Source: Sedimenticola selenatireducens (lineage in GTDB: Bacteria; Pseudomonadota; Gammaproteobacteria; Chromatiales; Chromatiaceae). From it: 64,000 nt of DNA. The translations under genes were made by a program, and so were the position numbers. Below, piece after piece: positions 6,230-44,814 of the stretch (the first letter of the stretch is position 1; each line of letters begins with the position of its first letter). A model generated the notes under the pieces. That model was not told where the DNA came from. It worked only from the letters and a program-made list of their open reading frames with translations, and ran no database searches. Location: assembly GCF_007625115.1 (NCBI RefSeq), contig NZ_VMNH01000004.1:301277-365276 (forward strand), given 5' to 3'.

Positions 6230-6242
6230 ATAAGTTAAAGAT

Positions 6243-28906: not shown

Positions 28907-28971
28907 TTACGGATGCCATGCATCACATCATCGATTAATAAAAACCTTCTTACCCCTCTCGGGAGTTTTCT

Positions 28972-30087: not shown

Positions 30088-31349
30088 CGATCGCGCTAGG
30101 CTGTATTGCTGATGACTTTACCGGCGCTACCGACCTTGCCAGCACCCTGGTAAAACAGGGAATGTCGGTGATCCAGATCAACGGCATTCCCAAACAGCCC
30201 ATTGCACTGAACGAAGCCGAAGCGGTGGTCATTGCTTTAAAGTCGCGCACTACACCCGTTGAGCAGGCCATTACTGAATCATTGGAAGCCTTGCAGTGGT
30301 TACTAAATCAGGGTGCCATGCAGATATTCTTCAAGTACTGCTCAACCTTTGACTCTACTGATCAGGGGAATATCGGGCCCGTCACCGAGGCCTTAATGTA
30401 TGCCTTGGAAGAGACCTTTACCATCGCCTGTCCGGCCTTCCCGACGAATGGGCGTACCCTCTATCAAGGTCACCTCTTTGTTGGCAACTGTCTGCTTTCA
30501 GAATCAGGTATGCGTGATCACCCACTGACGCCGATGCGGGATGCCAATCTTGTATCCGTCCTTGATCGTCAGACGAAAGGTAATGTAGGTCTAATCCCCT
30601 GGACAACCGTCAATCAAGGGGTGACTGCGATACAAGATGCAATTAAAAAGTTAAAGCAGGATAACATTCAGCATGCCATCGTAGATGCCATAACAGATCA
30701 GGACCTGATAAATATTGGTCACGCCTGTGCAGACTTAAAACTGATCACCGGAGGTTCAGGTATCGCCATGGGCTTACCTGACAACTTTCGAAGAAAAAAA
30801 TCTGTCGGCAATAGTGAAGCACACTTCCCACTCAACCTACCCGGCAATACCGCTGTTCTGGCCGGCAGTTGTTCACTGGCGACTATTGAACAAGTAGCGA
30901 CCGCACGGAAACAGTGGCCGGCCTTTCCAATTGATGCGATTTCGTTGGCGGATAACGATCGACTGGTTGATGAGATACTTCAGTGGTCGGAACAGCACGT
31001 GGAGAATAGTCCCATCCTAATCTACTCCACCGCCTCTGCGACTGAAGTCACCCATATTCAATCCGTCCTGGGCAGAGCGGAAGCCGGCGAGATGGTTGAA
31101 GTCGCTATGGGAAAAATAGCACAGGGATTGCTGGAACGGGGTGTGCGAAAACTGGTTGTCGCGGGCGGAGAAACCTCTGGTGCCGTGGTACAGGCGCTGG
31201 GGGTAAATGCCATGGAAATCGGGCCCGAGATTGCACCCGGTGTTCCCTGGTGCCGTACATTGGGGGATCCCAATATTCTGTTGGCACTCAAATCCGGTAA
31301 TTTTGGTGACAAGCACTTTTTTCTAAAAGCCGTGGAGCAGTTGAAATGA
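30084..31349 (+). CDS. otnK: DUF1537 four-carbon acid sugar kinase (OtnK-like)
   Basis: 421 residues with a GTG start overlapping the previous stop. The N-terminal IADDFTGATDLAS, the FFKYCSTFDSTDQGNIG block, PAFPTNGRTLYQGHLFV, and the C-terminal nucleotide site VVAGGETSGAVVQALG and GPEIAPGVPW define the DUF1537 acid-sugar kinases. The OtnK subgroup phosphorylates 3-oxo-tetronate at C4. The neighbouring OtnC-like decarboxylase supports that assignment over D-threonate kinase, which pairs with PdxA2. Confidence 0.88.
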   Translation: MTIALGCIADDFTGATDLASTLVKQGMSVIQINGIPKQPIALNEAEAVVIALKSRTTPVEQAITESLEALQWLLNQGAMQIFFKYCSTFDSTDQGNIGPVTEALMYALEETFTIACPAFPTNGRTLYQGHLFVGNCLLSESGMRDHPLTPMRDANLVSVLDRQTKGNVGLIPWTTVNQGVTAIQDAIKKLKQDNIQHAIVDAITDQDLINIGHACADLKLITGGSGIAMGLPDNFRRKKSVGNSEAHFPLNLPGNTAVLAGSCSLATIEQVATARKQWPAFPIDAISLADNDRLVDEILQWSEQHVENSPILIYSTASATEVTHIQSVLGRAEAGEMVEVAMGKIAQGLLERGVRKLVVAGGETSGAVVQALGVNAMEIGPEIAPGVPWCRTLGDPNILLALKSGNFGDKHFFLKAVEQLK

Positions 31350-31975
31350 GCGAAACCAAACTGCGGGATCAAATCACCGCTATCGCACGCTCCCTGTTTG
31401 AACGCGGACTCACCTTTGGGTCATCCGGCAACATCAGCGTTCGGCACGAAGATGGCTGGCTAATGACACCTACCGGATCATCCATGGGTGATCTCGATCC
31501 TGCAGCTATTTCGTTATTAGATGACAAGGGCCACTGGGTCTCGGGTGACAAACCGACCAAAGAGAGCCTGTTACACCTAGCCATGTACGAAGAGCGGCCG
31601 CAAACGGGGGCCGTTGTACATCTCCATTCAACCCACTCTGTTGCGGTAAGTTGTCTAGACGGCATTGACCACAACAACGTCCTGCCACCAATCACCGCTT
31701 ATTACGTGATGAAAATCGGCAAGCTACCTTTGATCCCCTATCATCCTCCAGGCGACATCAATCTCGCCAAGGCGGTGAAAGAGATGGCGTCTAAACACCA
31801 TGCGGTGCTATTGGCCAATCACGGGCCCGTGGTTGCAGGAAAATCGTTGTTGGATGCAGTGTATGCCACTGAAGAACTGGAAGAGACCGCCCGGCTTTTC
31901 CTGATGTTGCGCCAGGAAAGGTGTCGCTTTCTATCAGACAATGAAGCCGATCACCTGATAAATAAATCACATTGA
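31346..31975 (+). CDS. otnC: Class II aldolase-family 3-oxo-tetronate 4-phosphate decarboxylase-like (OtnC)
   Basis: 209 residues, start overlapping the otnK stop (ATGA). The class II aldolase/adducin fold shows GLTFGSSGNISVR, the PTGSSMGDL loop, GDKPTKESLLHL, the metal His pair in VVHLHSTHSVAV, and LLANHGPVVAG with a further His. OtnC enzymes decarboxylate 3-oxo-tetronate 4-phosphate to dihydroxyacetone phosphate, feeding glycolysis. This and otnK give the island its most secure chemistry. Confidence 0.88.
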   Translation: MSETKLRDQITAIARSLFERGLTFGSSGNISVRHEDGWLMTPTGSSMGDLDPAAISLLDDKGHWVSGDKPTKESLLHLAMYEERPQTGAVVHLHSTHSVAVSCLDGIDHNNVLPPITAYYVMKIGKLPLIPYHPPGDINLAKAVKEMASKHHAVLLANHGPVVAGKSLLDAVYATEELEETARLFLMLRQERCRFLSDNEADHLINKSH

Positions 31976-32014
31976 ACAGATGACAAAACAACACTTTTAC
32001 TCAGAAGGTAAGCC

Positions 32015-32299
32015 ATGTTTATTGTTACTGTGGTTTTTGAAATAAAGCCGGAAAAGTTGCAAAATTTTATGACTGAAATGCTATTGCAGGCGGACAATTC
32101 ACTGCTGCTCGAACCTGACTGTCATCAGTTTGATGTCTGCCAGGAGACGGATGAACCTAACCGGGTCTTTCTCTACGAGGTCTACAGCAATGAACCGGCC
32201 TTTCAGGTGCACCTGGCGAGTGAGCACTTTGCTACATTCTCCGCTCATACCCATGAGTGGATTAATGAAAAGACCGTCAATACCTGGTTACGATCATAA
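32015..32299 (+). CDS. Antibiotic biosynthesis monooxygenase (ABM)-domain protein
   Basis: 94 residues behind GAAGG. It has the ferredoxin-like ABM fold of YgiN-type proteins: FIVTVVFEIKPEKLQNF, SLLLEPDCHQFDVCQE, FLYEVYSNEPAFQVHLAS, and HFATFSAH. Such proteins serve as quinol monooxygenases or small isomerase/mutarotase-like helpers in catabolic operons. It is the last gene of the plus arm and stops 8 bp before the convergent photoreceptor gene. Confidence 0.78.
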   Translation: MFIVTVVFEIKPEKLQNFMTEMLLQADNSLLLEPDCHQFDVCQETDEPNRVFLYEVYSNEPAFQVHLASEHFATFSAHTHEWINEKTVNTWLRS

Positions 32300-32307: not shown

Positions 32308-33195
32308 TTAAACCGAAACCGGATGAGTCTGGCGCCATTCAAGTAACGCCTGCTCCACACTGTGCAGGCCCTGTAACCGTTCAATCCCCTCTGGGATCGA
32401 CGCCACATCCTGCAAGGCCGCGCCACCGGCCCAGATGCCAATGGAGGGTTCAATCATCTGCCGTAAACCACTGAGCATGACAACCGCATCATCCCCTTTG
32501 AAACTGCCGCTGAATGAAAGCCCGATAATATCAACCGTGTGACTGATAGCCGCCTGTTGAATATCCTTGAACGGCATTTCTGGACCAAACGGAATCACCT
32601 CGGCACCCCCCATGCGCAATAACGCCTCGACCATCAGCAAGCCCATGCTGTGCTTTTCGCCGGGAACCGTGGTCAACATGATCCGGGGCTGTCCACCCAC
32701 CTGGTAGTGTTCAGAGAGCGACTGACGTACCAGCGTCTTCATCAGTTCGGTAAAGAGGTGTTCTTCATAAGTCGCCAGCTCACCCCGTGACCAGGCATCC
32801 CCAACCGCATAGGTTGCCGGTACCATGACACGATGGATGAAGCTGCGAAGACCATTACTGATGAGTTGGCCGTGCAACCAATTGCGTAAGGCTGAGATAT
32901 CGCCCGATTTGAGATAACCAATGAGCTCAGAAGGATCAAATTCCGGTGCGGGAGCCTGTAGCAATGATTTGAGCTCCGTGACTTCCAGCTCAATCAGTTT
33001 TCCAGGTCGCTTACCCTGATCCTGTAGCTGCCTGATGAGTACCAGTTTATCCAGCTGGTCATCACTGTACACCCGGTCACCGTTATCATCGCGTATCGGG
33101 TCGGGATAACCGTAACGACGCTCCCACATGCGTAGCAGATCTTTCGGTATACCCGAAATTCGCGAAACATCACTGATATTGTATTGCTCACTCAT
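32308..33195 (-). CDS. litR: MerR-family B12-binding photoreceptor regulator (CarH/LitR-like)
   Basis: 295 residues. The N-terminal MerR helix-turn-helix (ISDVSRISGIP, LRMWERRYGYPDP) is followed by a helical bundle and a Rossmann-like cobalamin domain. The photoreceptor signatures of CarH are complete: W135-x9-E145-H146 above the upper axial face, and E180-x-H182-x2-G185, whose His ligates cobalt from below. Known members bind DNA as adenosylcobalamin tetramers in the dark and release it when light cleaves the Co-C bond. It is the last gene of a nine-gene operon, suggesting autoregulation. Confidence 0.92.
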   Translation of the reverse strand: MSEQYNISDVSRISGIPKDLLRMWERRYGYPDPIRDDNGDRVYSDDQLDKLVLIRQLQDQGKRPGKLIELEVTELKSLLQAPAPEFDPSELIGYLKSGDISALRNWLHGQLISNGLRSFIHRVMVPATYAVGDAWSRGELATYEEHLFTELMKTLVRQSLSEHYQVGGQPRIMLTTVPGEKHSMGLLMVEALLRMGGAEVIPFGPEMPFKDIQQAAISHTVDIIGLSFSGSFKGDDAVVMLSGLRQMIEPSIGIWAGGAALQDVASIPEGIERLQGLHSVEQALLEWRQTHPVSV

Positions 33196-33206
33196 AACTC
33201 ATCATC

Positions 33207-33632
33207 TTATACAGTATGGCTTTGCGGTAGACGCATTTTTTTCTTCAACTGTCTTAATATTGTACCCACCAGCGGAAACTCAAGAAACAGATCGGCACTG
33301 TCCCAGTAGTCACGATGCAGAGACACTCGCCCATCCCTACCGAATTCAAGCCGTGTTACGCCCTCAATAGTGATCTTTTTTCCTCGGATGCCGCAGTTGA
33401 ACACCCAGGTAACCCATGCAACACTGCCTGTCGACTGACTCTCAATAACATGAAAAACCGGGGCATCCGTGGTCTCAAACATATGCCTGAATAATGCAAC
33501 AATCTCATCCTGTCCCTGCAGTTGATTAAACGGGTCACGAAATACGGCCTGCTCATGGTAGATCTCTGAGAGCGCCCCGACAGTTTGAGGCGTTAGGGTA
33601 CTATACCAGTTAACCAGCGCCTTGAGTTTCAT
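33207..33632 (-). CDS. NTF2-like (SnoaL-fold) protein
   Basis: 141 residues with the cone-shaped NTF2-like pattern: LVNWYSTLTPQTVGALSEIYHEQAVFRDPFNQLQG, then HVIESQSTGSVAWVTW, EGVTRLEFGRDGRVSLHRDYWDSAD. Such proteins are often found as the second-last gene of light-induced lipid clusters next to MerR/LitR. Function unknown; it could bind or isomerise a small lipid. Its start overlaps the SDR stop by 4 bp and it lies 11 bp before litR. Confidence 0.78.
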   Translation of the reverse strand: MKLKALVNWYSTLTPQTVGALSEIYHEQAVFRDPFNQLQGQDEIVALFRHMFETTDAPVFHVIESQSTGSVAWVTWVFNCGIRGKKITIEGVTRLEFGRDGRVSLHRDYWDSADLFLEFPLVGTILRQLKKKMRLPQSHTV

Positions 33633-34399
33633 GAGCTCACCGCCTTGTTGACCAGGTAAAATCGTAGCCGGTCAGGAAGCCGGGCCAACCAGCGCATCGG
33701 CAAGGTGAATCGCTTTGGAAAGTGTATCTCAAACCGCCCCTTCGACATCCCGGTGATTATGGACTGGGCGGCCTGATCTGGTGAGATCAGGGCAGGCATG
33801 CTGAAGTCATTCTGCTGGGTCAGACGTGTCTCGACAAAGCCCGGATTGACCAGATAGACCCCGACCCCCCGACTGGAAAGGTCGCTATAAAGTATCTGGG
33901 CCAGATTGATAATGGCCGCCTTGGTCGGGCCATAGGCCAGCGCTTTGGGCAAGCCACTGAAGCCGGCCACACTGGCGAGCAGGCAGAGACCACCGGATCC
34001 CGTCCGAAGGTAGTGCGGTACAATCGTCGCCAACAGGTGATAAACCCCCTGCAGATTGGTCATGAGCGTGTCATCGACACACTCCAGGTCAATCTCCCAG
34101 GCTCGCATGGGTGAATAAACCCCTGCGCAATAGATCACCATATCAATCGCGCCCCAGGTCTCAATCAACTCATCGCAGGCACGGGCTACCGCTTCTGCAT
34201 CCGTGACCGTCAGGGACAACAAAAGGTCCTGCTGATGGGCAATCGCCTGCAATCCCCCCTCACTGCGGGCGCTCAGAGCAAGGTGGGCACCCGCCTCCCT
34301 GAGTTGTCCTGTCAGGGCCGCACCAATACCACTGCTTGCACCAATCACCCAGACCCGTCGTCCCTGCCAGTCCGTAATGGGGGGATTAAGGGGTTTCAT
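33629..34399 (-). CDS. Short-chain dehydrogenase/reductase
   Basis: 256 residues. The cofactor motif VIGASSGIGAAL, the NNAG-like YCAGVYS, the catalytic Ser in LLASVAGFS and Tyr-Lys in YGPTKAAI define a classical SDR. The C-terminus (KRFTLPMRWLARLPDRLRF) is membrane-leaning, as in SDRs acting on lipids. It is translationally coupled to its neighbours on both sides (ATGA-type overlaps) in the light operon. Confidence 0.88.
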   Translation of the reverse strand: MKPLNPPITDWQGRRVWVIGASSGIGAALTGQLREAGAHLALSARSEGGLQAIAHQQDLLLSLTVTDAEAVARACDELIETWGAIDMVIYCAGVYSPMRAWEIDLECVDDTLMTNLQGVYHLLATIVPHYLRTGSGGLCLLASVAGFSGLPKALAYGPTKAAIINLAQILYSDLSSRGVGVYLVNPGFVETRLTQQNDFSMPALISPDQAAQSIITGMSKGRFEIHFPKRFTLPMRWLARLPDRLRFYLVNKAVSS

Positions 34400-34923
34400 G
34401 ACCGTTTCCTGAAAAACAGCGTGACTTCACCCAACCGGAAACCGAACTTTTTCATCACGGAACGATTGAACATGACACCGTCCTCCTGCAGATACATCCA
34501 GTCATCAAAGGCGACCTCATACTCCTTGCCATCCACCGGCAGTTTCAGGGTATAAACCCAGTGCAGCGCGTTACCCGAGACACGCCCCTCGGCCACACCC
34601 ACCACATCATCAGCTTCACCCTGATACAGGCCGTCACCGATTCGGGTTAGCCGCCAGACACGCCGTTGCGTGGTGCCATCACTGTAGGTAAAACGTTCAT
34701 CCAGCACCCCTTTGTCGCCATTCCATTCAGCATCAATCACCACTTTGAAGCGCTTGACCACTTCGCCATTGCGTTTCTGGAACATGCCCCAGGCATCCAG
34801 CTGACCATTGAAATATGCTTCCATTTTCAATTCAGGTTGCTCGGCCTGATAGTTGTTCACATCAATCCCGGCGCAGCCCGTCAAGCTCACGGCAGAGAGA
34901 AACAGTAAGGGTTTAATTAGCAT
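34396..34923 (-). CDS. DUF3833 lipoprotein
   Basis: 175 residues with a lipobox (AVSLTGCAG, Cys at about 17). The mature part matches DUF3833: LKMEAYFNGQLDAWGMFQKR, a set of long strands with RVWRLTRIGDGLYQGEADDVVG, and MYLQEDGVMFNRSVMKKFG near the end. The beta-rich, lipocalin-like form suggests lipid handling in the periplasm, which is inference. It overlaps the transporter gene by 11 bp. Confidence 0.85.
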   Translation of the reverse strand: MLIKPLLFLSAVSLTGCAGIDVNNYQAEQPELKMEAYFNGQLDAWGMFQKRNGEVVKRFKVVIDAEWNGDKGVLDERFTYSDGTTQRRVWRLTRIGDGLYQGEADDVVGVAEGRVSGNALHWVYTLKLPVDGKEYEVAFDDWMYLQEDGVMFNRSVMKKFGFRLGEVTLFFRKRS

Positions 34924-36169
34924 TTTGAACCTCCAGGCTGGGACGCCAACGCAACAACAACCCAGCAGAAAAGAGTTTGATCACACAGGGCACTCCGGCA
35001 TAGAAAATGGCCAGCGCACCCAATCCGGCGGTATCCCCCGGTTGATAGCCAAAGCCGGACAACAACGGCAGTGACAGGCCTGCTGCCAGGGCCAGAACCA
35101 GTTTGTTAATCAGGCTCCAGATACCAAAATAGCTGGCCGTACGATCTCGCTCCGATTCGGGTATCAGGTCAGTGGCAATCGCTGCCGGCATGGCCAGGTC
35201 AGCCCCCAGTGCCGCACCTGACATCAGACAGATCATGGCGAACGGAACCAAATCCCCTGCACCCAGTTGAATAGCCCAGACAAAACCGCCTATCGCAACC
35301 AGGCTACCCACAAGCCAGGTCATGGGACGACCCACCCGTTTGGACAACGAGAGCCAAAGCGGCAACGAGCAGGCACCACTGACAAAGTAAATGGCAAGCA
35401 GATAACCGCTGGCCGCCTCCAGCTTGAGGACATCAGCGATATAAAACAGTGACAGGGTAGCGGCAATCGCCACCGCCAGACCATTTAGCAGGAACAGCGT
35501 GGCAAGGCGACGAAACGGCCTGTAGCGAAGTGGCTGCAGCATGTCTGATTCTGTCGCATTGGAAACTAACTGAGTCAATGGCGCCTTGGACATCAGCAAC
35601 CAGACCGCCGGTATCAGCACACAGCAGAACAGCACGCTGAACCACCACCAGCCTTGAGCCAGACCAAACCACTCAACAAATAGCATGGGCAGCAGGCTGG
35701 CAAGAATTACACCCAACAAGGCAAAGCCTTCACGATACGCAACCAGACGGGTACGCTCATGGGAGTGTTCACTGGCCCGGGCACCCCAGGCAAGATAGGT
35801 GATATTCAGCGCACTGTGCGCGGTGTAAACCAGTATCAGGGATATCGCCAACCAGATACCCAACCAGCCACCCGCTGCAACCGGCGGATTAAACAAGGCC
35901 ACATAGGCGATCAGCAATAACCCTGTTGCCAAGGCAACCAATACACCCCAACCACCCCGTCGGTGCTGTGCCAGATCAGCCAGTCGTCCCAGCCAGGGAT
36001 CTTGCAGTGTGTCCACTGCGCGGGAGAGCAGCAGGATCAGACCAGTCAGGGTGAGTCCCAGCCCCAGCTCATCACCGTAGAGTTTTGGTGCATGGATATA
36101 GACCGGCAGTGCGGCCATCGCCAGTGGCGCACCTAACAGGCCATAAGAGAGACGCTGGGCGATCCTCAT
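34913..36169 (-). CDS. GPH/MFS-type transporter
   Basis: 418 residues with twelve predicted membrane helices. SRAVDTLQDPWLGRLADLAQHR between helices 2 and 3 is the GPH (glycoside-pentoside-hexuronide:cation symporter) form of the MFS loop motif, and DLIPESERDRTASYFGIWSLINKL is the second-half equivalent. Members of this subgroup in similar light/singlet-oxygen lipid clusters have no known substrate; a lipid-derived compound is possible. Confidence 0.85.
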   Translation of the reverse strand: MRIAQRLSYGLLGAPLAMAALPVYIHAPKLYGDELGLGLTLTGLILLLSRAVDTLQDPWLGRLADLAQHRRGGWGVLVALATGLLLIAYVALFNPPVAAGGWLGIWLAISLILVYTAHSALNITYLAWGARASEHSHERTRLVAYREGFALLGVILASLLPMLFVEWFGLAQGWWWFSVLFCCVLIPAVWLLMSKAPLTQLVSNATESDMLQPLRYRPFRRLATLFLLNGLAVAIAATLSLFYIADVLKLEAASGYLLAIYFVSGACSLPLWLSLSKRVGRPMTWLVGSLVAIGGFVWAIQLGAGDLVPFAMICLMSGAALGADLAMPAAIATDLIPESERDRTASYFGIWSLINKLVLALAAGLSLPLLSGFGYQPGDTAGLGALAIFYAGVPCVIKLFSAGLLLRWRPSLEVQNAN

Positions 36170-36687
36170 CTCACCTGACCCAGCAAGCGTGCGCGCAAGT
36201 CCGGTTCCCGGGTTCGGGGATCTAACCAGATAGAAAAGAAGGCCGCCGCAACAGCCGGATCATGCAACCGACCGATTAGCTGGCCGTTACTGTAGAACAC
36301 GGCACCCTCATCCGGATGGTGAACACCCGTGATCTGGTCACCGGCCTCAACATCCCGCAGTACGGCACTGAGCTGCTGGTACAATGACTGGCGGTCCACG
36401 TAACTTTCCAACAGGGGTTCCATGTGATTGACTGAGGCCCAGGTCAACTGGTTACGGGAAAAGCTTGACTGATAGTCAATCTGTAGCGCGTGAAGCTGAT
36501 CAGCCTGGTATCGACCCTCCGGGGCCAGCAGGGTCGCACGGTAGATCGTCATACCCCAGAACGAAAGCTCCCCGGAACCAACAGGCTTAACTTGGCCCAA
36601 CAGATTCTCAAACTTTGTAGCTGACGCTGAACCCGTCAAAACCAGCAACAAAATCCCGAACAAACATTCTCTCGCGAACCGGCTCAT
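36166..36687 (-). CDS. Chalcone isomerase-like secreted protein
   Basis: 173 residues with a signal peptide (LLVLTGSASATK). The mature chain fits the bacterial chalcone-isomerase-like family: VGSGELSFWGMTIYRATLL, ALQIDYQSSFSRNQLTWASV, and FSIWLDPRTREPDLRARLLG at the C-terminus. The plant catalytic residues are not conserved in this group, which is thought to bind fatty acids or other lipids. It overlaps the transporter start by 4 bp. Confidence 0.82.
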   Translation of the reverse strand: MSRFARECLFGILLLVLTGSASATKFENLLGQVKPVGSGELSFWGMTIYRATLLAPEGRYQADQLHALQIDYQSSFSRNQLTWASVNHMEPLLESYVDRQSLYQQLSAVLRDVEAGDQITGVHHPDEGAVFYSNGQLIGRLHDPAVAAAFFSIWLDPRTREPDLRARLLGQVR

Positions 36688-36689
36688 GA

Positions 36690-37892
36690 TCAGCCCTCCC
36701 GCTCGAGTTGCAGCTGTACCACATCAATCCGGCCTTCATCGAAACCGGCCTCACAGTACGCCAGGTAGAAGCGCCAGAGACGAATAAACGCTTCATCAAA
36801 GCCCAATGCCTGAACCGCCGGTAACTGCTGTTCAAAACGATGGGCCCAGCGTCTCAGTGTCTCTGCATAATCGGCGCCAAAATCCTCTCTTACACCAACC
36901 TGAAACCCCGCCTCTGAAGCAATCTGCTGCATCCGTTCCGTTGAAGGCAACATGCCACCCGGGAAGATATATTGCTGGATAAAGTCAGTTCCCTGGCTAT
37001 AGCGTTCAAAATGTTCTTCGTCGATAACTATGGATTGAATCGCCACACGCCCGCCCGGCTTAAGCAGACGGTGAAGCTGATCAAAATAGGTCTGCCAGTA
37101 ATCCTGACCCACGGCCTCCAGCATTTCGATGGAGACCACATGATCATAGCGACCTTTAGCCGCCCGATAGTCACGCAACTCAAATGTGGCCCACGCTTCC
37201 AGACCCGCTTCCTGAATGCGTTTGCGCGCAAACGCCAGTTGCTCATGAGAGAGCGTTAAACCATGCACTCGGATACCCTGGCTTGCGGCGAATTCCGCAA
37301 AGCCACCCCAGCCACAGCCCACTTCCAGGATCTGCTCACCCGGCTTGGCACCGACCAGATCCAGCATGCGTTGATACTTCGTCTCCTGTGCCTGCAACAG
37401 GCCACCCTGTCGACCACACTCAAATCTTGCACTGGAATAGGTCATGCTGCTGTCCAGCCAGAGTGAGTAGAAGTCATTGCCAAGGTCGTAGTGTGCCTGG
37501 ATGTTTCTGGCGCTCCCTTTCGGTGTATTTCTGCGTAACAGATGGCGTAATCGATAACCCAGATTAAGCAGTGGATTGCCGTGTATGGCACGCTCCAGTA
37601 CCGCCTGGTTACGAATACCCAGCCGTATCAGTGCGGTGAGATCATTGGTTTTTATCAAACCGTCCCGATAGCATTCCGCCAAGCCGATATCACCATTTCT
37701 AAATACACGACGCAGCGCACGCCAATCCAGAATCTCCAGTTGGACACGGGGACCGGACTCGCTGCCCAGATTAAGTCGATAACCTTCTGGGGTTATGAGT
37801 CGTAGTTTTCCCTCCCTGATCCGTCCGATTCGATTGATAATCGGGCGAATACGCAGAGGCAGAGTTTGTGCCTCAAGTGTCATGCTGTTCAT
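36690..37892 (-). CDS. Cyclopropane-fatty-acyl-phospholipid synthase family methyltransferase
   Basis: 400 residues from the ATG at 37892 (ATGA overlap with the DUF1365 stop, GAGGAGA ahead). The SAM site is ILEVGCGWGGFAEFAA; the flanking AHYDLGNDFYSLWLD, GLTLSHEQLAFA, and FIQQYIFPGGMLPS blocks define the CFA synthase family. Members methylate unsaturated acyl chains of membrane lipids to cyclopropane or, in relatives in clusters like this one (UfaM type), to methylated precursors of furan fatty acids. Which of these applies is not decidable by sequence alone. Confidence 0.92.
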   Translation of the reverse strand: MNSMTLEAQTLPLRIRPIINRIGRIREGKLRLITPEGYRLNLGSESGPRVQLEILDWRALRRVFRNGDIGLAECYRDGLIKTNDLTALIRLGIRNQAVLERAIHGNPLLNLGYRLRHLLRRNTPKGSARNIQAHYDLGNDFYSLWLDSSMTYSSARFECGRQGGLLQAQETKYQRMLDLVGAKPGEQILEVGCGWGGFAEFAASQGIRVHGLTLSHEQLAFARKRIQEAGLEAWATFELRDYRAAKGRYDHVVSIEMLEAVGQDYWQTYFDQLHRLLKPGGRVAIQSIVIDEEHFERYSQGTDFIQQYIFPGGMLPSTERMQQIASEAGFQVGVREDFGADYAETLRRWAHRFEQQLPAVQALGFDEAFIRLWRFYLAYCEAGFDEGRIDVVQLQLEREG

Positions 37893-38647
37893 CTCGAGAT
37901 CTCCTCGCTGGATGGTGTCGGACGTTGATGAAAGGTGGCCCCCTTGAGCCAAAGCCGCAGTGCCTGCCAATGGATACGCACCATTACACCGACCGTCAGC
38001 AAGGGCTGTTTCAACAAGGCGGTGAATAAGGCCGAAACGGTTAAGGGTTTGGATTTACCCCAGATGGCGGTATTGAGTTGCAGCTCACCTGACTGTAAGT
38101 AGTCAATCCACACATGCGGCGCATCAAAATCCATCTTGAATTTAAACTGGTACTCACCCTCAACGGGATAGAAGGGTGAGACATGCATCTGTTTGATCGC
38201 CTGCAGCGTCTGATCTTCGGCACGCTCAGCATCCAGGCGCAGCAGGTAACAGTGTCTGTCACCGAAGGTGTTGTTTACCTCGGCCACCACCGCCCCAATC
38301 GAACCATCGGCACGCTCGCAGTACCAGAAATTGACCGGATTAAACGCATATCCAAACACCCTCGGAAAGCTGTGAAGCCAGATCGTCCCAGGACAATCCG
38401 TCACGCCCTGCTGCTTAAGCAACGCCCTCAGCCACAGCCTGGGATCACCACCGTCACCATAATCCTCGAAATGGAGGGAGAGCGGCCGGCGTCGGTTCAC
38501 ACCAAACAGCCAGCTGTTGTGTTTATCGAACTCATCACAGTTGAACAGCAAGTAAAACACTGGATAGACAAAACGGTTTTCAAACGGACGCCGCCTGAAA
38601 TGCATCACCTTGCCCTGTACGATTCGACTCAGAGCACGACAGGCCAT
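37889..38647 (-). CDS. DUF1365 protein
   Basis: 252 residues. Typical DUF1365 segments: VMHFRRRPFENRFVYPVFYLLFN, SWLFGVNRRRPLSLH, WLHSFPRVFGYAFNPVNFWYCE, EVNNTFGDRHCYLL, and a C-terminal amphipathic region. The family always accompanies the FAD oxidoreductase and CFA synthase genes in lipid-modifying clusters tied to light and singlet oxygen responses. It overlaps both neighbours (19 bp with the FAD gene). Biochemical role unassigned to my knowledge. Confidence 0.9.
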   Translation of the reverse strand: MACRALSRIVQGKVMHFRRRPFENRFVYPVFYLLFNCDEFDKHNSWLFGVNRRRPLSLHFEDYGDGGDPRLWLRALLKQQGVTDCPGTIWLHSFPRVFGYAFNPVNFWYCERADGSIGAVVAEVNNTFGDRHCYLLRLDAERAEDQTLQAIKQMHVSPFYPVEGEYQFKFKMDFDAPHVWIDYLQSGELQLNTAIWGKSKPLTVSALFTALLKQPLLTVGVMVRIHWQALRLWLKGATFHQRPTPSSEEISR

Positions 38648-39891
38648 GGGGCCTCCACATCAAAATCAGCAGTCACACGCAGGGCTGACTTCAAACCGTC
38701 TTCATGAAAACCATAACCACACCAGGCACCGCAGAACCAGGCCCGATTTCGTCCCTGTATCTGTGGCAAGGCAGATTGCGCCGCGATTGCTACCTGATCA
38801 AAAACGGGATGATCGTAGTGATAGCGCGCAATCTCATGTTCTGGCTGCATCGTTTCCGGCGGATTGAGCGTCACCATCACTGGCGAGTTGAACGGCAGCC
38901 GCTGCAACTTGTTCAACAGGTAAGTGACGCAAACCGTCTGATCGCTCTCACCCGTCGATAGATAATTCCAGGCCGACCAGAGTGATTCACGTTCCGGTAG
39001 GAAGCGTGCATCGGTGTGAAGCACAGCGGTATTCGCCTGATATCCCACCGCACCCAGTACCTGTTTCTCCTGCTCATCCGCATCGGCCAGCATGCGCAAG
39101 GTGTCTGGAGCATGGGTCGCAAAGATCACTGCATCGAATTGATGCGCCACACCACCACTGGTAAGCTCCACGCCCTTCTCTGATCGTGTCACGCGTTCGA
39201 TGACATGATTGAGTCTGGTGTCGATGGACGCCGCCATGCGTTTGACATAGGCACGCCCTCCTCCTGCTATTGTCCGCCACTGAGGCCTTCCCTCCACCTG
39301 CAGCAGGCGATGGTTGATACAGAAGTTGAGGAAGGTTTCGGCAGGAAAACGCAGGATCTCTTCCGGCGAGCAGGACCAGATCGCCGCCGCCATCGGCAGC
39401 AGATACCAGTCACGCAGTACGCTTGAGTAGCCCTCCTGGTCCAGTAGCTCACCCAAGGCAAGCCCTTTCTGTCGGGAAACCAACAGATGCTGCTGCGCTC
39501 GACTATTGAATCGCAGCAAATCTATCAGCATGCGCAGGAATGCAAGCCTTATAAGGTTTCGCTTCTGTCCGAATACCGTGGAGAGCGAGCTGCCTGCCCA
39601 CTCCACATTGTGATCAGGCAGTTTGACGCTAAAGGACATCTCGGTGTCATAGGTTTCCACATCCAGATGCTTGAACAGCTGTATCAGGTTGGGATAGGTA
39701 AGATCGTTATGCACCAGAAAGCCGGTATCAACCGGATGGGTGACCCCTTCGAGAGTGACATCGACCGTGTTGGTATGGCCACCCAGATAGTTGGCTGCTT
39801 CAAACAGCGTCACCTCATGCTTCTGGTTAAGCAACCAGGCCGAAGCCAGACCACTGATACCACTCCCCACGACTGCTATTTTCATATCCAT
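38629..39891 (-). CDS. FAD-dependent amine-oxidase-like oxidoreductase
   Basis: 420 residues from the ATG at 39891; a Met two codons on (39885) is an equally good start, and 39912 is unlikely because it would precede the inferred transcription start. Dinucleotide site: IAVVGSGISGLASAWLL, with the LFEAANYLGGHTNTV second strand. The C-terminal FAD site includes NRAWFCGAWCGYGFHEDGLKSA. It belongs to the flavin amine oxidase/desaturase superfamily and should oxidise lipid acyl chains together with DUF1365 and the CFA synthase. It is the first gene of the nine-gene operon. Confidence 0.9.
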   Translation of the reverse strand: MDMKIAVVGSGISGLASAWLLNQKHEVTLFEAANYLGGHTNTVDVTLEGVTHPVDTGFLVHNDLTYPNLIQLFKHLDVETYDTEMSFSVKLPDHNVEWAGSSLSTVFGQKRNLIRLAFLRMLIDLLRFNSRAQQHLLVSRQKGLALGELLDQEGYSSVLRDWYLLPMAAAIWSCSPEEILRFPAETFLNFCINHRLLQVEGRPQWRTIAGGGRAYVKRMAASIDTRLNHVIERVTRSEKGVELTSGGVAHQFDAVIFATHAPDTLRMLADADEQEKQVLGAVGYQANTAVLHTDARFLPERESLWSAWNYLSTGESDQTVCVTYLLNKLQRLPFNSPVMVTLNPPETMQPEHEIARYHYDHPVFDQVAIAAQSALPQIQGRNRAWFCGAWCGYGFHEDGLKSALRVTADFDVEAPWPVVL

Positions 39892-39898
39892 TGGCCTA

Positions 39899-39966
39899 TT
39901 TGTACTATACATATCTACGATAATAGCGAATGTCAGCGGTAATGCAAGCTATTTGTACAGCACAAT
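39899..39966 (-). promoter_or_regulatory. Promoter and candidate CarH/LitR operators of the nine-gene operon
   Basis: On the minus strand TTGCAT (39942-39947), a 16-bp spacer and TATTAT (39920-39925) form a promoter-like pair. It is bracketed by TTTGTACTATACAT (39899-39912) and TTTGTACAGCACAAT (39952-39966, + strand reading). The same two motif types occur upstream of the photolyase operon and cbiX. A repressor bound here would cover the promoter on both sides. Confidence 0.5.
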
Positions 39967-40276: not shown

Positions 40277-40576
40277 TCAGGGTAACTGTCTGTTTAAACC
40301 CTTGCCAGGCGATATCAGATAATCCCTATCCGGAAAAACGGGTCGGCCCACATCCGGGAAAGAGCCAAACCCACAATGACACCTGCCCAGGCCTGAAAAT
40401 CGTTGTTCATTATCCTGAGCACACGCGGTGTTACTCTCGTAAGACCTCATCGGCTGTGATGGGATTTTTTGATTCCCTGAGACCGGCGAGTGAAGATGAC
40501 AGCTCAGCACAGATGCGGTTGACCCCCACAGAGGCCATAAAAGCAGGCCCGTCATCAGGTAGCAAACAGACCGCAT
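40277..40576 (-). CDS. Small secreted Cys-containing protein, possible ZrgE-like member of the zinc locus
   Basis: 99 residues starting 5 bp after the DUF3299 stop. The N-terminus (MRSVCYLMTGLLLWPLWGSTAS) is a signal peptide. The mature part has SCHLHSPVSG, then ACAQDNEQRFSGLGRCHCG, a Cys/His-rich pattern suited to metal binding. I do not recognise a family. Vibrio Zrg operons also end in a small periplasmic protein, so this may be its counterpart; that is inference from position. Confidence 0.5.
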   Translation of the reverse strand: MRSVCYLMTGLLLWPLWGSTASVLSCHLHSPVSGNQKIPSQPMRSYESNTACAQDNEQRFSGLGRCHCGFGSFPDVGRPVFPDRDYLISPGKGLNRQLP

Positions 40577-40581
40577 GGGGT

Positions 40582-41133
40582 TTATTCGTAAGGTTCTACT
40601 TTTGTTGCATCAATGGTGTAACCGGCATCGGCAAGATCTGAGCTGAATTGCTCAACGTCTATTACACCGGTCACCCACACCACATCAAAGAGTTGACGGA
40701 TGGCTGCCCCCTTCTTGTCACGTGTGGTGACATGGATGGTCTGGTTAGCAGGTGGTGGTGGCACATGGATACAGGCACCATAGTAAGGAACCAGCAAAAA
40801 TTCAGAGGATTTCTCCCCGTCAGTTTCAAGCGGCACAACAAAGCCAGGGAGTCTAACGGTCTTGCCCGCCAGACTGTCATTAACAGGCGCGTCCTTCATG
40901 AGCGCTTCCAGTTTTTTTGTAAGTTCTGCGATACGTGGGTCATCGTCGGACAAATTGTCAATATCGTACTCTTTCTGATACTGCGCCAACACTTCATCAG
41001 GATTGAAGCCCTGTGGGATAAGGTCCGTCCACTCCAGCTCTTGAGGGCTCTCTGCCGCATGAACATGACTGATAAAGAGACCAGACAGGACAGCAAGCGT
41101 GATGATTAAGACAAATATTCTCTTTATAAACAT
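40582..41133 (-). CDS. Exported DUF3299 protein (Zrg-type zinc locus)
   Basis: 183 residues with a signal peptide (VLSGLFISHVHAAE). DUF3299 features: ELEWTDLIPQGFNPDE near the start, VRLPGFVVPLETDGEK, the FLLVPYYGACIHVPPPPANQ block with one Cys, and VWVTGVIDVEQFSS near the end. The family is periplasmic and typically follows a LolCDE/MacB-like ABC pair with a DUF2796 protein in zinc-uptake operons. The AGGAA site and 16-bp gap indicate co-transcription with the permease. Confidence 0.85.
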   Translation of the reverse strand: MFIKRIFVLIITLAVLSGLFISHVHAAESPQELEWTDLIPQGFNPDEVLAQYQKEYDIDNLSDDDPRIAELTKKLEALMKDAPVNDSLAGKTVRLPGFVVPLETDGEKSSEFLLVPYYGACIHVPPPPANQTIHVTTRDKKGAAIRQLFDVVWVTGVIDVEQFSSDLADAGYTIDATKVEPYE

Positions 41134-41149
41134 TTCAGTGTTTCCTGCG

Positions 41150-42409
41150 TTAAAGTCGGATGGTCATGCCATCGGCCAGAGAGTAGCGATACGCGCGATA
41201 GGCAGGTATTAATCCAACCAACAGTCCCGTTCCAATAGCCGCCGCCAACAAAAACAGTTCGTGTGACGAAGGGGGGTGTATAGGGAGAAAGAGTCCAAGC
41301 TGCGTTTGAATGATAGGCCGGGCGATCAGCTGTGCTAAATAGAGCGCAGCAACGCCTGTAACTGATGCAATAGTCATAACGGCACCCGCCTCCCCCATAA
41401 ACAAGACAAAAATGTGCCAGGGTCGAGCCCCCACAGAACGTAAGACCGCCATCTCGCGCCGCCGTTCATTGAGGCTGGTAAGAATCGCGGTCGCCATACC
41501 ACTTATACCTACCAGCACAACCAATATCGAAATCGCCAGCAACGCCTGCTGGGCAATGGCCATGGTATCCCATAGCTCCTGCAAGGCCACACCGGGGAGT
41601 GCAGCTAATAGCGGTTCTTTCGGATATTCATTGATGTAACGTTGAACACGAAAGACGGCCAGGCGCGACTTCAAACCCACAAGGACGGCGGTAATGGTCT
41701 TCGGCTGCAGATCCAGGAGCGACGTCTTGTCCACGGTTTTAGGTTGTTTTAGATCCAGTGCGCCATCTTTCCAGCCTACATGAATCGCTTCAATGCCTTC
41801 CAGACTGACATGCACGGTTCGATCAACAGGGGTACCGGTTTTACGCAGGATACCCACAATACGGAAGGGCTTGTCGGCGTGCTGAACAAAGCTCACCTTA
41901 CCCGTTCCATGGGCGAGTACAATCTCCTGCTCCAGCGAATAGCCGAGCTCTTTGGCGACATCGGCACCTACTACGGCATGGTAAACAGTGGAAAAGGGTT
42001 TGCCCTGAGAAAACTCAAGCGGCTGCTGATCGCCATATTGATAGTGGTTGAAATAATCGAGATTGGTGCCCAGCACCCGAAAGCCCTGATGGGAATCACC
42101 CAACGAGAACGGAATGGTCCATGCAACGAGTCGGTGATCTTTGATCTCCTCATAACTCTTCCATGACACATTGTTGGTCGGATTGCCGATTCGAAAAACC
42201 GAGTAAAGCAAAAGTTGAACGGGACCGCTTCGTGCGCCAATAATCAGATCCGTACCTGAGATCGTACTGGCAAAGCTTTCACGCGCATCATTGCGTATAC
42301 GCTCCACACCGAGTAACAGCATGATACTCAGTGCAATCGAAAAGACCGTAAGGGCAATGGTAAATTTTCGGTTTACTATACTTTTAAAGGCCAGCATAAG
42401 GATGTGCAT
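41150..42409 (-). CDS. FtsX/LolCE-type ABC transporter permease (Zrg-type)
   Basis: 419 residues. The first membrane helix is near 18-38 (FTIALTVFSIALSIMLLLG), followed by a ~230-residue periplasmic MacB-like domain. Three C-terminal helices hold the FtsX motif ILTSLNERRREMAVLRSVGARPWHIFVLF. With the next ATPase it forms an ABC machine of the MacB/LolCDE mechanotransmission type. In this locus it probably powers zinc handling at the envelope rather than lipoprotein release. Confidence 0.88.
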   Translation of the reverse strand: MHILMLAFKSIVNRKFTIALTVFSIALSIMLLLGVERIRNDARESFASTISGTDLIIGARSGPVQLLLYSVFRIGNPTNNVSWKSYEEIKDHRLVAWTIPFSLGDSHQGFRVLGTNLDYFNHYQYGDQQPLEFSQGKPFSTVYHAVVGADVAKELGYSLEQEIVLAHGTGKVSFVQHADKPFRIVGILRKTGTPVDRTVHVSLEGIEAIHVGWKDGALDLKQPKTVDKTSLLDLQPKTITAVLVGLKSRLAVFRVQRYINEYPKEPLLAALPGVALQELWDTMAIAQQALLAISILVVLVGISGMATAILTSLNERRREMAVLRSVGARPWHIFVLFMGEAGAVMTIASVTGVAALYLAQLIARPIIQTQLGLFLPIHPPSSHELFLLAAAIGTGLLVGLIPAYRAYRYSLADGMTIRL

Positions 42410-42420
42410 AGTAATTCTCG

Positions 42421-43125: not shown

Positions 43126-43182
43126 TTTGAATACTCCCTGTAGGCAGGAGGCTGAAAAACAGCCTCCCCGCTACTGCCGGGC

Positions 43183-43722: not shown

Positions 43723-43809
43723 TTTGTATCTCCGATTCAAACAACATCTTAACTCTTTCATTTAAGGCTAAGAATGTGTCTAGGAACTAATAATTTCAAA
43801 TGTTGACGA

Positions 43810-44274: not shown

Positions 44275-44637
44275 TTATCCCGACACACCGCTGATTAAAA
44301 AATCAGGCATGGATGGATTAGCCCCGATGTGGGGCAGGCAGTTGATCTTCACGTCGGCGTGTTCAGAGACTGCTTTGTTGATCTCCCTGGGTATATCCTC
44401 AGCCACATGCCGGCCCGCTGAGAGAAAATAGGGCACGATGGTGATCGCTGTAGCACCCGCCTCAATACAGCGGCGAATTCCTGTTGGTATATCCGGCTCG
44501 GCGATCTCCAGAAAGGCACTGGAAACAGAGTCAAATTGACTACCCGCAATGGCCTCAATCTTCCTGGCCAAATCCTGAACTTCCTGATTAGAGGCTGTCC
44601 TTCGACTTCCGTGCGCAATGAGCAAGAGTGCATGCAT
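44275..44637 (-). CDS. cbiX: Small CbiX-type sirohydrochlorin cobaltochelatase
   Basis: 120 residues, the single-domain form of CbiX/SirB chelatases. Metal-site His residues are present: H9 in LLIAHGSRR and H77 in FLSAGRHVAEDIP; SSAFLEIAEPDIPTGI is also typical. It inserts Co2+ (or Fe2+ in SirB/siroheme use) into sirohydrochlorin, an early step of anaerobic cobalamin synthesis. It stands alone, with AGGAG ahead and a striking palindrome in its leader. The B12-type photoreceptor encoded 11 kb away makes cobalt insertion the more interesting option. Confidence 0.85.
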   Translation of the reverse strand: MHALLLIAHGSRRTASNQEVQDLARKIEAIAGSQFDSVSSAFLEIAEPDIPTGIRRCIEAGATAITIVPYFLSAGRHVAEDIPREINKAVSEHADVKINCLPHIGANPSMPDFLISGVSG

Positions 44638-44667: not shown

Positions 44668-44710
44668 TAATCCAGGTCATTTATTGTACTGTACAAAATG
44701 ACCTGGATTA
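44668..44710. promoter_or_regulatory. Perfect 15-bp inverted repeat with TTGTAC core in the cbiX leader
   Basis: Arms TAATCCAGGTCATTT (44668-44682) and its exact complement (44696-44710) enclose TTGTACTGTACAA, itself a palindrome (44684-44696). It starts 31 bp before the cbiX ATG. It can be an operator for a dimer/tetramer or an RNA hairpin in the 5' leader; both readings are open. Confidence 0.65.
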
Positions 44711-44735
44711 GGCTAATCGTGACATAAATATTATA

Positions 44736-44814
44736 TTTGTACTAGACATTTATGAGTTTATGCCTATAATACGACTCATGCAGCGCCGAAACGGCCTGTT
44801 TTGTACAACACAAA
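44736..44814 (+). promoter_or_regulatory. Promoter and candidate operators of the photolyase operon
   Basis: TAGACA (44743-44748), 16 bp, then a perfect TATAAT (44765-44770) precede the 54-residue gene. TTTGTACTAGACAT (44736-44749) covers the -35, and TTTTGTACAACACAAAT (44799-44815) lies in the leader. Both repeat motifs found at 39899 and 39952. Confidence 0.6.

What the first reader, a model, noticed from the sequence alone, without database searches (positions are those of the whole stretch)
32308..39966. Nine-gene lipid/photoprotection operon ending in a fully equipped CarH/LitR photoreceptor
All nine genes overlap or nearly touch. The terminal MerR regulator has both W135-x9-EH and E180-x-H182-x2-G185, so it should bind adenosylcobalamin and respond to light, unlike class II LitR proteins of Pseudomonas that, as I recall, work without B12. 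The cargo (FAD oxidase, DUF1365, CFA-type methyltransferase, chalcone-isomerase-like, GPH transporter, DUF3833, SDR, NTF2) resembles clusters tied to furan or cyclopropane fatty acids under singlet oxygen. A light-gated acyl-chain modification pathway in a non-phototroph-like context is a good target.
Basis: partly seen in the sequence, partly recalled or inferred. Interest (0 to 1): 0.78.

Follow-up and report, generated by a model that had tools for sequence, protein, structure and literature searches.

The report
B12 light switch for furan lipids
A Sedimenticola-like, apparently non-photosynthetic bacterium carries a nine-gene operon whose gene families and order match the known furan-fatty-acid genes and which ends in a regulator predicted to sense light with vitamin B12; the same rare pair of DNA sites lies in front of this operon and of a nearby photolyase operon, so light would likely switch on membrane and DNA protection together.

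Summary
The nine-gene operon is real and conserved. Its first three genes belong to the families of the furan-fatty-acid enzymes UfaD, UfaO and UfaM, so a furan acyl chain is likelier than plain cyclopropane. The last gene encodes a MerR protein with both B12 subdomains and the residues known to hold adenosylcobalamin. It is not a CarH equivalog: the His that caps cobalt after illumination in Thermus CarH is Ser136 here, and His in only 1 of 120 listed family members.

TGTAYNRTACA dyads sit 53 bp apart around the ufaD promoter. This pair (up to 1 mismatch) occurs at two places in the 4.03-Mb genome; the other, 4.8 kb away, lies between a cbiX gene and a glutathione-peroxidase/photolyase operon. 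In both Craterilacuibacter genomes the exact dyad occurs once, at the ufa promoter. Spacings in relatives are close to whole DNA turns.

Best reading: a B12-dependent repressor, released by light, of membrane and DNA photoprotection. LitR and ChrR control of such genes is published; a B12-type LitR inside a furan operon did not appear in my searches. Binding, light response and product are untested.

The parts
38629..39885 (-). ufaD-type FAD-dependent oxidoreductase (predicted acyl desaturase); listed ORF begins at 39912, likely start 39885
   Evidence: Pfam Amino_oxidase/NAD_binding_8; homologues start MKIAVV or similar; kind of protein described for R. sphaeroides RSP1091/UfaD in PMC7380195
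37889..38647 (-). ufaO-type DUF1365 protein (predicted furan-forming oxygenase)
   Evidence: PF07103 258.7 bits; UfaO holds DUF1365 in PMC7380195
36690..37892 (-). ufaM-type SAM-dependent acyl methyltransferase (CMAS family); ORF listed from TTG 37970
   Evidence: PF02353 282.3 bits; below the cut-offs of the NCBIfam cyclopropane-synthase models matched
36166..36687 (-). chalcone-isomerase-like protein
   Evidence: PF16036 38.2 bits
34913..36169 (-). GPH/MFS_2 transporter
   Evidence: PF13347 197.2 bits
34396..34923 (-). DUF3833 protein (lipobox-like N-terminus by eye)
   Evidence: PF12915 238.4 bits
33629..34399 (-). short-chain dehydrogenase
   Evidence: PF00106 119.5 bits
33207..33632 (-). 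SnoaL/NTF2-like protein
   Evidence: PF12680 60.8 bits
32308..33195 (-). LitR/CarH-type MerR regulator with B12-binding_2 and B12-binding domains (predicted AdoCbl photoreceptor-repressor)
   Evidence: Pfam; best solved relatives are Thermus LitR/CarH by sequence and by fold (AlphaFold pLDDT 87.0, Foldseek 5c8e 1.4e-18); ligand residues 120 of 120 in the listed family members aligned
39954..39964 (-). upstream operator dyad of the ufa operon, TGTGCTGTACA
   Evidence: 53 bp from the next dyad; pair with <=1 mismatch at two places of the genome
39920..39947 (-). predicted sigma-70-like promoter of the ufa operon: TTGCAT (39942-39947), 16 nt, TATTAT (39920-39925), between the two dyads
   Evidence: read by eye from the aligned promoters; not flagged by the stricter consensus scan
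39901..39911 (-). downstream operator dyad of the ufa operon, TGTATAGTACA
44685..44695 (.). operator dyad on the cbiX side, TGTACTGTACA, within a longer inverted repeat CCAGGTCATTT...AAATGACCTGG
44738..44748 (.). middle operator dyad, TGTACTAGACA; contains the -35-like TAGACA of a promoter-like site of the photolyase operon (44743-44770, TAGACA-16-TATAAT, 11 of 12)
   Evidence: the scan as a whole found 6 sites where shuffles give 6.8, so the promoter match alone is weak
44802..44812 (.). third operator dyad (1 mismatch), TGTACAACACA, 64 bp from the middle one, just before the 54-aa ORF
44275..44637 (-). CbiX-type chelatase (cobalt for B12, or iron for siroheme)
   Evidence: PF01903 101.4 bits
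44829..44993 (+). 54-aa protein of unknown function, first gene of the photolyase operon; 65-89% identical in three relatives
   Evidence: no Pfam match; tblastn in L030, L031, L002
45040..45636 (+). glutathione-peroxidase family protein
   Evidence: PF00255 105.7 bits
45645..46070 (+). DUF3429 protein
   Evidence: PF11911 99.5 bits
46083..47012 (+). NAD-dependent epimerase/DUF1731 protein
   Evidence: PF01370, PF08338
47044..48495 (+). DNA photolyase
   Evidence: PF03441 249.8 bits, PF00875 166.4 bits

Best explanation
The operon encodes, by gene families and order, the furan-fatty-acid pathway plus its own LitR/CarH-type regulator, which is predicted to hold adenosylcobalamin and, in the dark, would likely clamp two operator dyads 53 bp apart around the ufaD promoter and let go in light. 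Shown: the genes, their conservation, the B12-ligand residues, the dyad pairs and their near-uniqueness in the genome. Inferred: that this regulator binds the dyads; that an AdoCbl-bound oligomer (tetramer or pair of dimers) bridges two dyads lying on one face of the DNA and blocks sigma-70 RNA polymerase; that light breaks the Co-C bond and releases it; that UfaM methylates cis-vaccenoyl phospholipid, UfaD desaturates it and UfaO inserts oxygen to make a methylfuran chain that scavenges singlet oxygen. The same dyads in front of the glutathione-peroxidase/photolyase operon and of cbiX would put lipid, peroxide and DNA-damage defence, and perhaps a cofactor gene, under one light switch. As litR is the last gene of the operon, light would also refill the repressor pool (negative feedback). 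Because Thermus His132 is Ser here, release cannot rest on that bis-His cobalt; a water- or Glu145-based light state, as reported for CtMerR, is the likelier route.
For: Regulator: both B12 subdomains; nearest solved relatives Thermus LitR/CarH by sequence and fold; G132, W135, E145, H146, G179, E180, H182, G185, G204 and P208 each 120 of 120 in the listed family members (119 relatives plus the window's own protein, of 1808 found); this is the GxxW/EH/GxxH/GxxxP signature of tested AdoCbl photoreceptors (PMC11796333). Genome has a BtuR/CobO adenosyltransferase, a MetH-like protein by my reading (L010) and no ChrR match. Operators: TGTAYNRTACA-N42-TGTAYNRTACA with <=1 mismatch at 2 places in 4.03 Mb, next best 3 mismatches, reversed control 0; a simple base-composition estimate expects 0.003. 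With <=1 mismatch the pair occurs in 5 of 55 relatives, each time at ufaD, and in G000 also at cbiX/orf54; G007's pair at cbiX/orf54 has 2 mismatches. In 369 genomes of the class it occurs in 2, both carrying this operon. TTGTAYNRTACAA occurs once in each of two Craterilacuibacter genomes, at the ufa promoter, reversed control 0. Linkage of regulator and operon persists in two layouts: terminal and divergent. In G014 the ufa and orf54-gpx-epimerase operons diverge from one three-dyad region; in G007 the start of ufaD, cbiX and the photolyase operon lie within 4.5 kb. Dyad spacings 53, 62, 63, 64, 74 and 21 bp fall near whole turns of 10.5 bp (R 0.93; 1 of 20000 random draws as good). Enzymes: UfaM, UfaD and UfaO suffice for furan fatty acid in R. 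sphaeroides; R. palustris RPA2571, 2570, 2569 = ufaD, ufaO, ufaM, the order seen here (PMC7380195 passages). Precedent: LitR controls ufaM and phrB by light in Pseudomonas (PMC9758184).
Against: No experiment. Thermus His132 is Ser136; in one study most Thermus H132A protein stayed tetrameric in light, against an earlier report of disassembly (PMC10442372), so light release is not assured. The third element of the classic B12 motif is SFS, not SxT/V. NCBIfam's CarH equivalog cut-off is missed. The dyads differ from the tandem 11-bp direct repeats of known CarH operators (PMC9304148). The single flanked dyad TGTAYNRTACAAA is not rare enough by itself: 2 in the genome, reversed control 1. LitR-family copies occur without ufa genes in the stretches fetched (G031:C40, 60%; G021:C549, 36%; L083, L084, L086, 35-36%), so the family is not tied to this cargo alone. 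11 of the 16 DUF1365-bearing relatives have ufa-type genes without this regulator. One pair with 2 mismatches occurs in a genome without this LitR (G036). The four genomes of the class draw with distant LitR lack the 53-bp pair. I did not align the enzymes with R. sphaeroides or R. palustris proteins themselves; orthology rests on family and gene order. The ufaD promoter is weak by consensus.
Confidence: 0.6

Rival explanations
1. The regulator binds B12 but reports cobalamin status or redox/oxygen rather than light; the ufa and photolyase genes are derepressed when AdoCbl is scarce or oxidised.
For: The residue at Thermus His132 is His in only 1 of 120 listed family members; H132A Thermus protein largely stays tetrameric in light in one study (PMC10442372); a cbiX gene carries the same operators.
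Against: Target set is photolyase, peroxidase and furan lipids, a photo-oxidative set, as in light-induced LitR regulons; W and EH, which contact the photolabile adenosyl group, are invariant; CtMerR lacks the His and still falls to monomers in light (PMC11796333).
Confidence: 0.17
2. A separate light sensor (for example a LOV or BLUF protein) acts on this regulator, as PmSB-LOV acts on class II PmlR2, and the B12 domain is structural.
For: LOV-LitR coupling is shown in P. mendocina for the same kind of target genes (PMC9758184).
Against: Class II LitRs lack a working Rossmann B12 domain, whereas here its ligand residues are invariant; none of the 19 window proteins scanned with Pfam is a LOV or BLUF protein. 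I did not search the genome for LOV or BLUF proteins.
Confidence: 0.1
3. The operon is controlled mainly by an ECF sigma factor/ChrR-type singlet-oxygen response, and the regulator only modulates something else.
For: Furan-fatty-acid genes are core sigma-E/ChrR targets elsewhere (PMC6852236; PMC7380195); V. cholerae uses ChrR plus a MerR protein (PMC5241685); ChrR is present in G014, which also has this operon.
Against: No ChrR match in this genome, nor in G017 and G018, which have the operon and its dyads; G031 has only matches under the cut-off; the promoter read between the dyads is sigma-70-like.
Confidence: 0.06
4. The lipid product is a cyclopropane or 10-methyl/methylene acyl chain rather than a furan.
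For: The methyltransferase is of the CMAS family and family name alone does not tell UfaM from Cfa.
Against: UfaD- and UfaO-family genes directly precede it in the published furan gene order; its scores are below the cut-offs of the NCBIfam cyclopropane-synthase models matched.
Confidence: 0.2

Closest known systems
Thermus thermophilus CarH/LitR (and CtMerR, Bacillus and Myxococcus CarH)
   Same: MerR + four-helix + Rossmann B12 domains, Wx9EH, ExHx2G lower-ligand motif, GxxW/EH/GxxH/GxxxP signature; in Thermus HB8 a photolyase gene is one gene away from carH
   Different: 22-28% identity in the 50 Foldseek rows shown; no His132; SFS instead of SxT/V; paired dyads instead of tandem direct repeats (PMC9304148 passages); cargo is furan lipid genes, not carotenoid genes
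Class II LitR of Pseudomonas (PplR, PmlR) with short LOV proteins
   Same: controls ufaM, phrB and a cluster with SDR and FAD-oxidoreductase genes by light (PMC9758184); sites contain TGTACA
   Different: class II lacks a working B12 domain and needs a LOV partner; its sites are TGTACA-N12-TGTACA repeats, here TGTAYNRTACA dyads in pairs 53-64 bp apart
R. sphaeroides RSP1091-1087 + ufaM and the sigma-E/ChrR regulon
   Same: UfaD, UfaO, UfaM kinds of protein (PMC7380195 passages); a photolyase is sigma-E-dependent there (title in the reference list of PMC6852236)
   Different: regulated there by ChrR/sigma-E; no ChrR match in this genome; here all genes and litR lie in one operon. That RSP1089-1087 are GPH, DUF3833 and SDR proteins is recalled, not read in a call

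Membership tests
LitR/CarH family, B12-type (class I-like) | MerR HTH + B12-binding_2 + B12-binding domains | tested here: met
   Pfam over cut-off for PF13411, PF02607, PF02310; fold match to 5c8e
LitR/CarH family, B12-type (class I-like) | Wx9EH and lower-ligand ExHx2G | tested here: met
   W135/E145/H146 and E180/H182/G185; 120 of 120 listed family members
LitR/CarH family, B12-type (class I-like) | SxT/V-x22-27-GG of the classic B12 motif (as given in PMC9304148) | tested here: inconclusive
   S227-F-S229 and G257-G258: spacing fits, Ser replaces Thr/Val; S229 in 120 of 120
LitR/CarH family, B12-type (class I-like) | position in a tree of LitR classes I-V | not tested
   named members of classes II-V were not fetched
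LitR/CarH family, B12-type (class I-like) | AdoCbl binding and light-dependent oligomer/DNA binding | not testable with these tools
   needs protein
CarH proper (NCBIfam NF052513 equivalog) | score at or above 400 bits | tested here: not met
   125.9 bits; therefore not filed as a CarH equivalog
CarH proper (Thermus mechanism) | His132 for bis-His cobalt in the light state | tested here: not met
   Ser136 here; His in 1 of 120 listed family members
CarH proper (Thermus/Bacillus operators) | tandem 11-bp TnnACA direct repeats | tested here: not met
   dyads 53-64 bp apart, judged by eye and pattern; binding sites themselves not mapped
Class II LitR | only the four-helix B12 subdomain kept; LOV partner | tested here: not met
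   Rossmann B12 domain present with ligand His; LOV genes not searched genome-wide
Furan fatty acid (ufa) operon | UfaD-, UfaO- and UfaM-family genes together, in that order | tested here: met
   order compared with RPA2571-2570-2569 by locus number in PMC7380195
Furan fatty acid (ufa) operon | methylfuran acyl product | not testable with these tools
   needs lipid analysis
Sigma-E/ChrR singlet-oxygen regulon | ChrR anti-sigma factor in the genome | tested here: not met
   TIGR02451: no match in G000

The most novel reading that the evidence does not exclude
A B12 photoreceptor family without the bis-His light switch clamps pairs of operator dyads set whole helical turns apart around sigma-70 promoters, and thereby ties furan-lipid synthesis, peroxide and DNA repair, and a chelatase gene for its own cofactor, to sunlight in non-phototrophic sulfur oxidisers and clam symbionts: a compact light-defence regulon with a cofactor feedback loop.
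Probability: 0.3. Interest if true: 0.76.

Novelty: new variant of a known kind. Interest (0 to 1): 0.58.

Why it matters
Furan fatty acids are singlet-oxygen scavengers whose making is known under ChrR/sigma-E and, through ufaM, under LOV-driven class II LitR control. A B12-type receptor placed inside the pathway operon would be a third, one-component light switch for the same lipid, and it occurs in named Betaproteobacteria (Craterilacuibacter; Azoarcus sp. KH32C) where it could be tested. It would also test how CarH-like proteins without His132 release DNA, and give a two-dyad promoter design for green-light gene control. Close relatives of the regulator are annotated in Candidatus Thiodiazotropha and a Ctena orbiculata symbiont (their operons were not examined), which would suggest that chemosynthetic sediment bacteria and clam symbionts guard against daylight.

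Tried and rejected
Considered and dropped: plain cyclopropane operon (UfaD and UfaO families precede the methyltransferase); ChrR control (no ChrR match); a cobalamin riboswitch at cbiX (no Rfam match at gathering score in the window); the second CarH-like gene of the genome as the regulator (L009: 27% identity, Trp of Wx9EH replaced by Cys, about 150 kb away); phototrophy (no PF00124 match). A BLAST with two query proteins in the wrong frame was repeated correctly. Residue numbers printed for the Thermus chain are 5 too high; corrected with the full protein. A 1-mismatch 11-mer that overlaps a better site (44797) and the 2-mismatch hits (which would give 59 and 5 bp in the window, 31, 22, 6 and 57 bp in G014) were left out of the spacings. 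For the phase test I collapsed lineages by hand to 8 spacings (G017's 54 bp was folded into the 53 of its family); lineages are not fully independent and I had seen the spacings before testing, so 1 of 20000 is indicative; the analytic p printed for the 8 came out negative and is not used, that for 7 without Comamonas is 0.0003. Of 13 distant or Craterilacuibacter loci scanned, 7 gave a pair; L083, L090, L034, L032 and the two Craterilacuibacter loci gave none. Literature: nine searches listed no paper on a B12-type LitR/CarH in a furan-fatty-acid operon; several lists were cut (20 of 340, 12 of 23, 10 of 35), only open-licence PMC papers are held, and the key P. putida paper (PMC7515241) was not held.

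Full report
ANATOMY. Nine minus-strand ORFs at 32308-39912 overlap or lie within 11 bp of each other. In transcription order: amine-oxidase-type FAD protein, DUF1365, CMAS methyltransferase, chalcone-isomerase-like, GPH/MFS_2 transporter, DUF3833, SDR, SnoaL_2, and a MerR protein with B12-binding_2 and B12-binding domains. The FAD protein probably starts at ATG 39885 (MKIAVV), since homologues start there and the upstream in-frame ATG at 39912 reaches into an operator. The window lies in a 4.03-Mb, 99.99%-complete genome. A genome of the same genus (G005) has its LitR (72%) on a 5,589-base contig, apparently the contig of that length that the named collection lists as a Sedimenticola MAG (LitR 71%), so the source is a Sedimenticola-like gammaproteobacterium.

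PATHWAY. PMC7380195 (passages) reports that R. sphaeroides UfaM (RSP2144), UfaD (RSP1091, an NAD/FAD-binding desaturase) and UfaO (RSP1090, DUF1365) suffice to turn cis-vaccenoyl chains into a methylfuran fatty acid, that R. palustris has them as RPA2569, RPA2571 and RPA2570, and that RSP1087, RSP1088 and RSP1089 are not needed for the product. The window's first three genes are these kinds of protein in the R. palustris order (by locus number). The methyltransferase scores below the cut-offs of the NCBIfam cyclopropane-synthase models it matches. I did not align the proteins with the Rhodobacter sequences, so orthology is inferred from family and order.

CONSERVATION. The nine-gene order with the regulator last recurs in G014, G017, G018 and G031 (family of the window), partly in G005 (contig end), and in two Craterilacuibacter genomes of the Betaproteobacteria (regulator 42-43% identical). 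In Azoarcus sp. KH32C plasmid pAZKH and in G343 the eight cargo genes are the same and the regulator is divergent from ufaD. LitR at E <= 1e-30 is found in 7 of 55 relatives; one of them (G021) has no ufa genes on its 11.6-kb contig, and G031 has a second copy without ufa genes on its 17.4-kb contig. DUF1365 is found in 16 of 55 relatives; 5 are the LitR operons, the other 11 have ufa-type genes at lower identity in the 7.5-20 kb fetched, without a close LitR (one stretch, L068, holds a 23% match 8 kb off); two of the 11 (G035, G043) share more of the cargo. In a draw of 369 genomes of the class, LitR at E <= 1e-50 is found in 6.

REGULATOR. By sequence the best solved relatives are Thermus LitR/CarH (E 4.8e-28); the AlphaFold model (pLDDT 87.0, pTM 0.73) matches Thermus CarH with DNA and AdoCbl first (Foldseek E 1.4e-18, rmsd 12.2 over the whole chain, 2.6-2.8 for the best matches to the B12 part alone). 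Numbered on the full Thermus protein, W131, E141, H142, E175, H177 and G180 correspond to W135, E145, H146, E180, H182 and G185. All are invariant in the 120 proteins listed (119 relatives and the window's own, of 1808 found), as are G132, G179, G204 and P208, which complete the GxxW/EH/GxxH/GxxxP signature described for tested AdoCbl photoreceptors (PMC11796333, passages and one section). Thermus His132 is Ser136 here: Ser 59, Ala 32, Asn 13, His 1, others 15 of 120. In PMC10442372 (passages) H132A protein mostly stayed tetrameric in light, with an earlier report of disassembly noted; [quoted passage not shown] So B12 binding is well supported, and light release is likely but must differ from the Thermus route. 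NCBIfam's CarH equivalog is matched at 125.9 bits against a cut-off of 400. The genome encodes a BtuR/CobO adenosyltransferase and, by my reading, a MetH-like protein (L010).

OPERATORS. The promoters of ufaD in the window, L002 and L003 each carry two 11-bp dyads TGTAYNRTACA (up to 1 mismatch) exactly 53 bp apart, with a TTGNNN...TATNAT-like promoter between them in most. A single flanked dyad TGTAYNRTACAAA occurs twice in the genome, its reversed control once, so it is not telling alone. The pair with up to 3 mismatches occurs three times: two with 1 mismatch (ufaD; window 44685-44748) and one with 3 (C13), reversed control 0. Base composition predicts 0.003 occurrences with <=1 mismatch. 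Across 55 relatives with <=2 mismatches the pair is found in 6 genomes: G000, G007, G014, G018 and G031 at ufaD (G000 and G007 also at cbiX/orf54, G007's with 2 mismatches), and G036 (2 mismatches, no LitR); with <=1 mismatch in 5 of 55. G017 has the pair at 54 bp and G005's promoter is not on its contig. A Fisher test of close LitR against the 53-bp pair gives 4 of 6 versus 1 of 49, p 0.0002; the 1 is G007, where only the start of ufaD is on the contig. Across 369 genomes of the class the pair with <=1 mismatch is found in 2, both with this operon; the four genomes there with distant LitR lack it. In both Craterilacuibacter genomes TTGTAYNRTACAA occurs once, next to a TTGAC-type -35 of the ufa promoter, reversed control 0.

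SECOND OPERON. The other pair in the window lies between cbiX (minus) and an operon of a 54-aa ORF, glutathione peroxidase, DUF3429, NAD-epimerase and DNA photolyase (plus). A third dyad sits 64 bp further, and a promoter-like TAGACA-16-TATAAT (11 of 12) has its -35 inside the middle dyad (the scan gave 6 sites where shuffles give 6.8). In G014 ufaD and the 54-aa ORF/peroxidase operon diverge from one region with three dyads (53 and 63 bp); in G031 the 54-aa ORF also faces ufaD; in G007 the start of ufaD, cbiX and the photolyase operon sit within 4.5 kb, with dyads at both control regions. In the window about 4 kb of other genes (DUF3299, FtsX-type and ABC proteins, ZrgA) separate cbiX from ufaD. 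CbiX could serve siroheme instead of B12.

SPACING. In more distant LitR loci the dyad core changes to TTGTCNNNGACAA-like, again in pairs near litR in 7 of 13 loci scanned: 62 (Eleftheria), 63 (G184, G296, G240), 64 (G343), 74 (Azoarcus), 21 bp (Comamonas). With 53 and 64 these are close to whole turns of 10.5-bp DNA (collapsed to 8 spacings, R 0.93, 1 of 20000 random draws as good; caveats in Tried and rejected). This fits one oligomer holding two dyads on one DNA face. Known CarH operators are tandem 11-bp repeats (PMC9304148, passages); PmlR2 sites are TGTACA-N12-TGTACA (PMC9758184, section 7).

MECHANISM. Dark: AdoCbl-bound regulator on both dyads, promoter closed. Light: Co-C cleavage, release, transcription of ufa, photolyase and possibly cbiX; litR made last restores repression. 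Steps of binding, light and product are inferred. Rivals are a B12 or redox sensor, a separate photoreceptor partner, ChrR-type control and a non-furan product.

NOVELTY. Light control of ufaM and phrB by class II LitR with LOV is published, as are ChrR control of furan genes (PMC6852236, passages) and a joint ChrR/MerR blue-light response with induction of a CFA-synthase gene in V. cholerae (PMC5241685, passages). A B12-type LitR in a furan operon, with phased dyad pairs, was not listed in the nine searches named in Tried and rejected. I rate it a new variant of a known kind.

Noticed in passing
G000:C24:179009-179824 (L009): A second MerR/B12 protein of the same genome keeps EH and the lower-ligand His but has Cys in place of the Trp of Wx9EH (as B12-independent CarA lacks the Trp), and is divergent from what reads like a fasciclin-domain gene; the LitR of the Eleftheria terrae plasmid (L088) is also divergent from an annotated fasciclin gene.
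   Followed up: partly
G000:C26:271505-274855 (L011): A 343-aa B12-binding-type protein followed directly by a diguanylate-cyclase-like gene (read by eye): possible light- or B12-sensing input to c-di-GMP.
   Followed up: no
L033 (G017:C3) 798-1658: The litR of this otherwise complete nine-gene operon has two in-frame TAG codons, both where relatives have Glu; decay, sequence error or recoding not distinguished.
   Followed up: no
window 44670-44710: The dyad at 44685 lies in a longer inverted repeat CCAGGTCATTT...AAATGACCTGG just upstream of cbiX.
   Followed up: no
window 40277-44124: DUF3299, FtsX-type permease, ABC ATPase and ZrgA-type zinc-uptake genes separate the two operons here and are absent between ufaD and cbiX in G007, so they look inserted.
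   Followed up: partly
window 27365-32299: Genes that read like a TctA transporter, isocitrate/tartrate dehydrogenase, DUF1537-type kinase and class II aldolase, and an ABM-domain gene, lie next to litR on the other strand: a likely organic-acid catabolic cluster.
   Followed up: no
L089 (Comamonas endophytica plasmid) 4363-8903: A LitR relative with two dyads 21 bp apart upstream of it has a BLUF-domain gene about 3 kb away.
   Followed up: no
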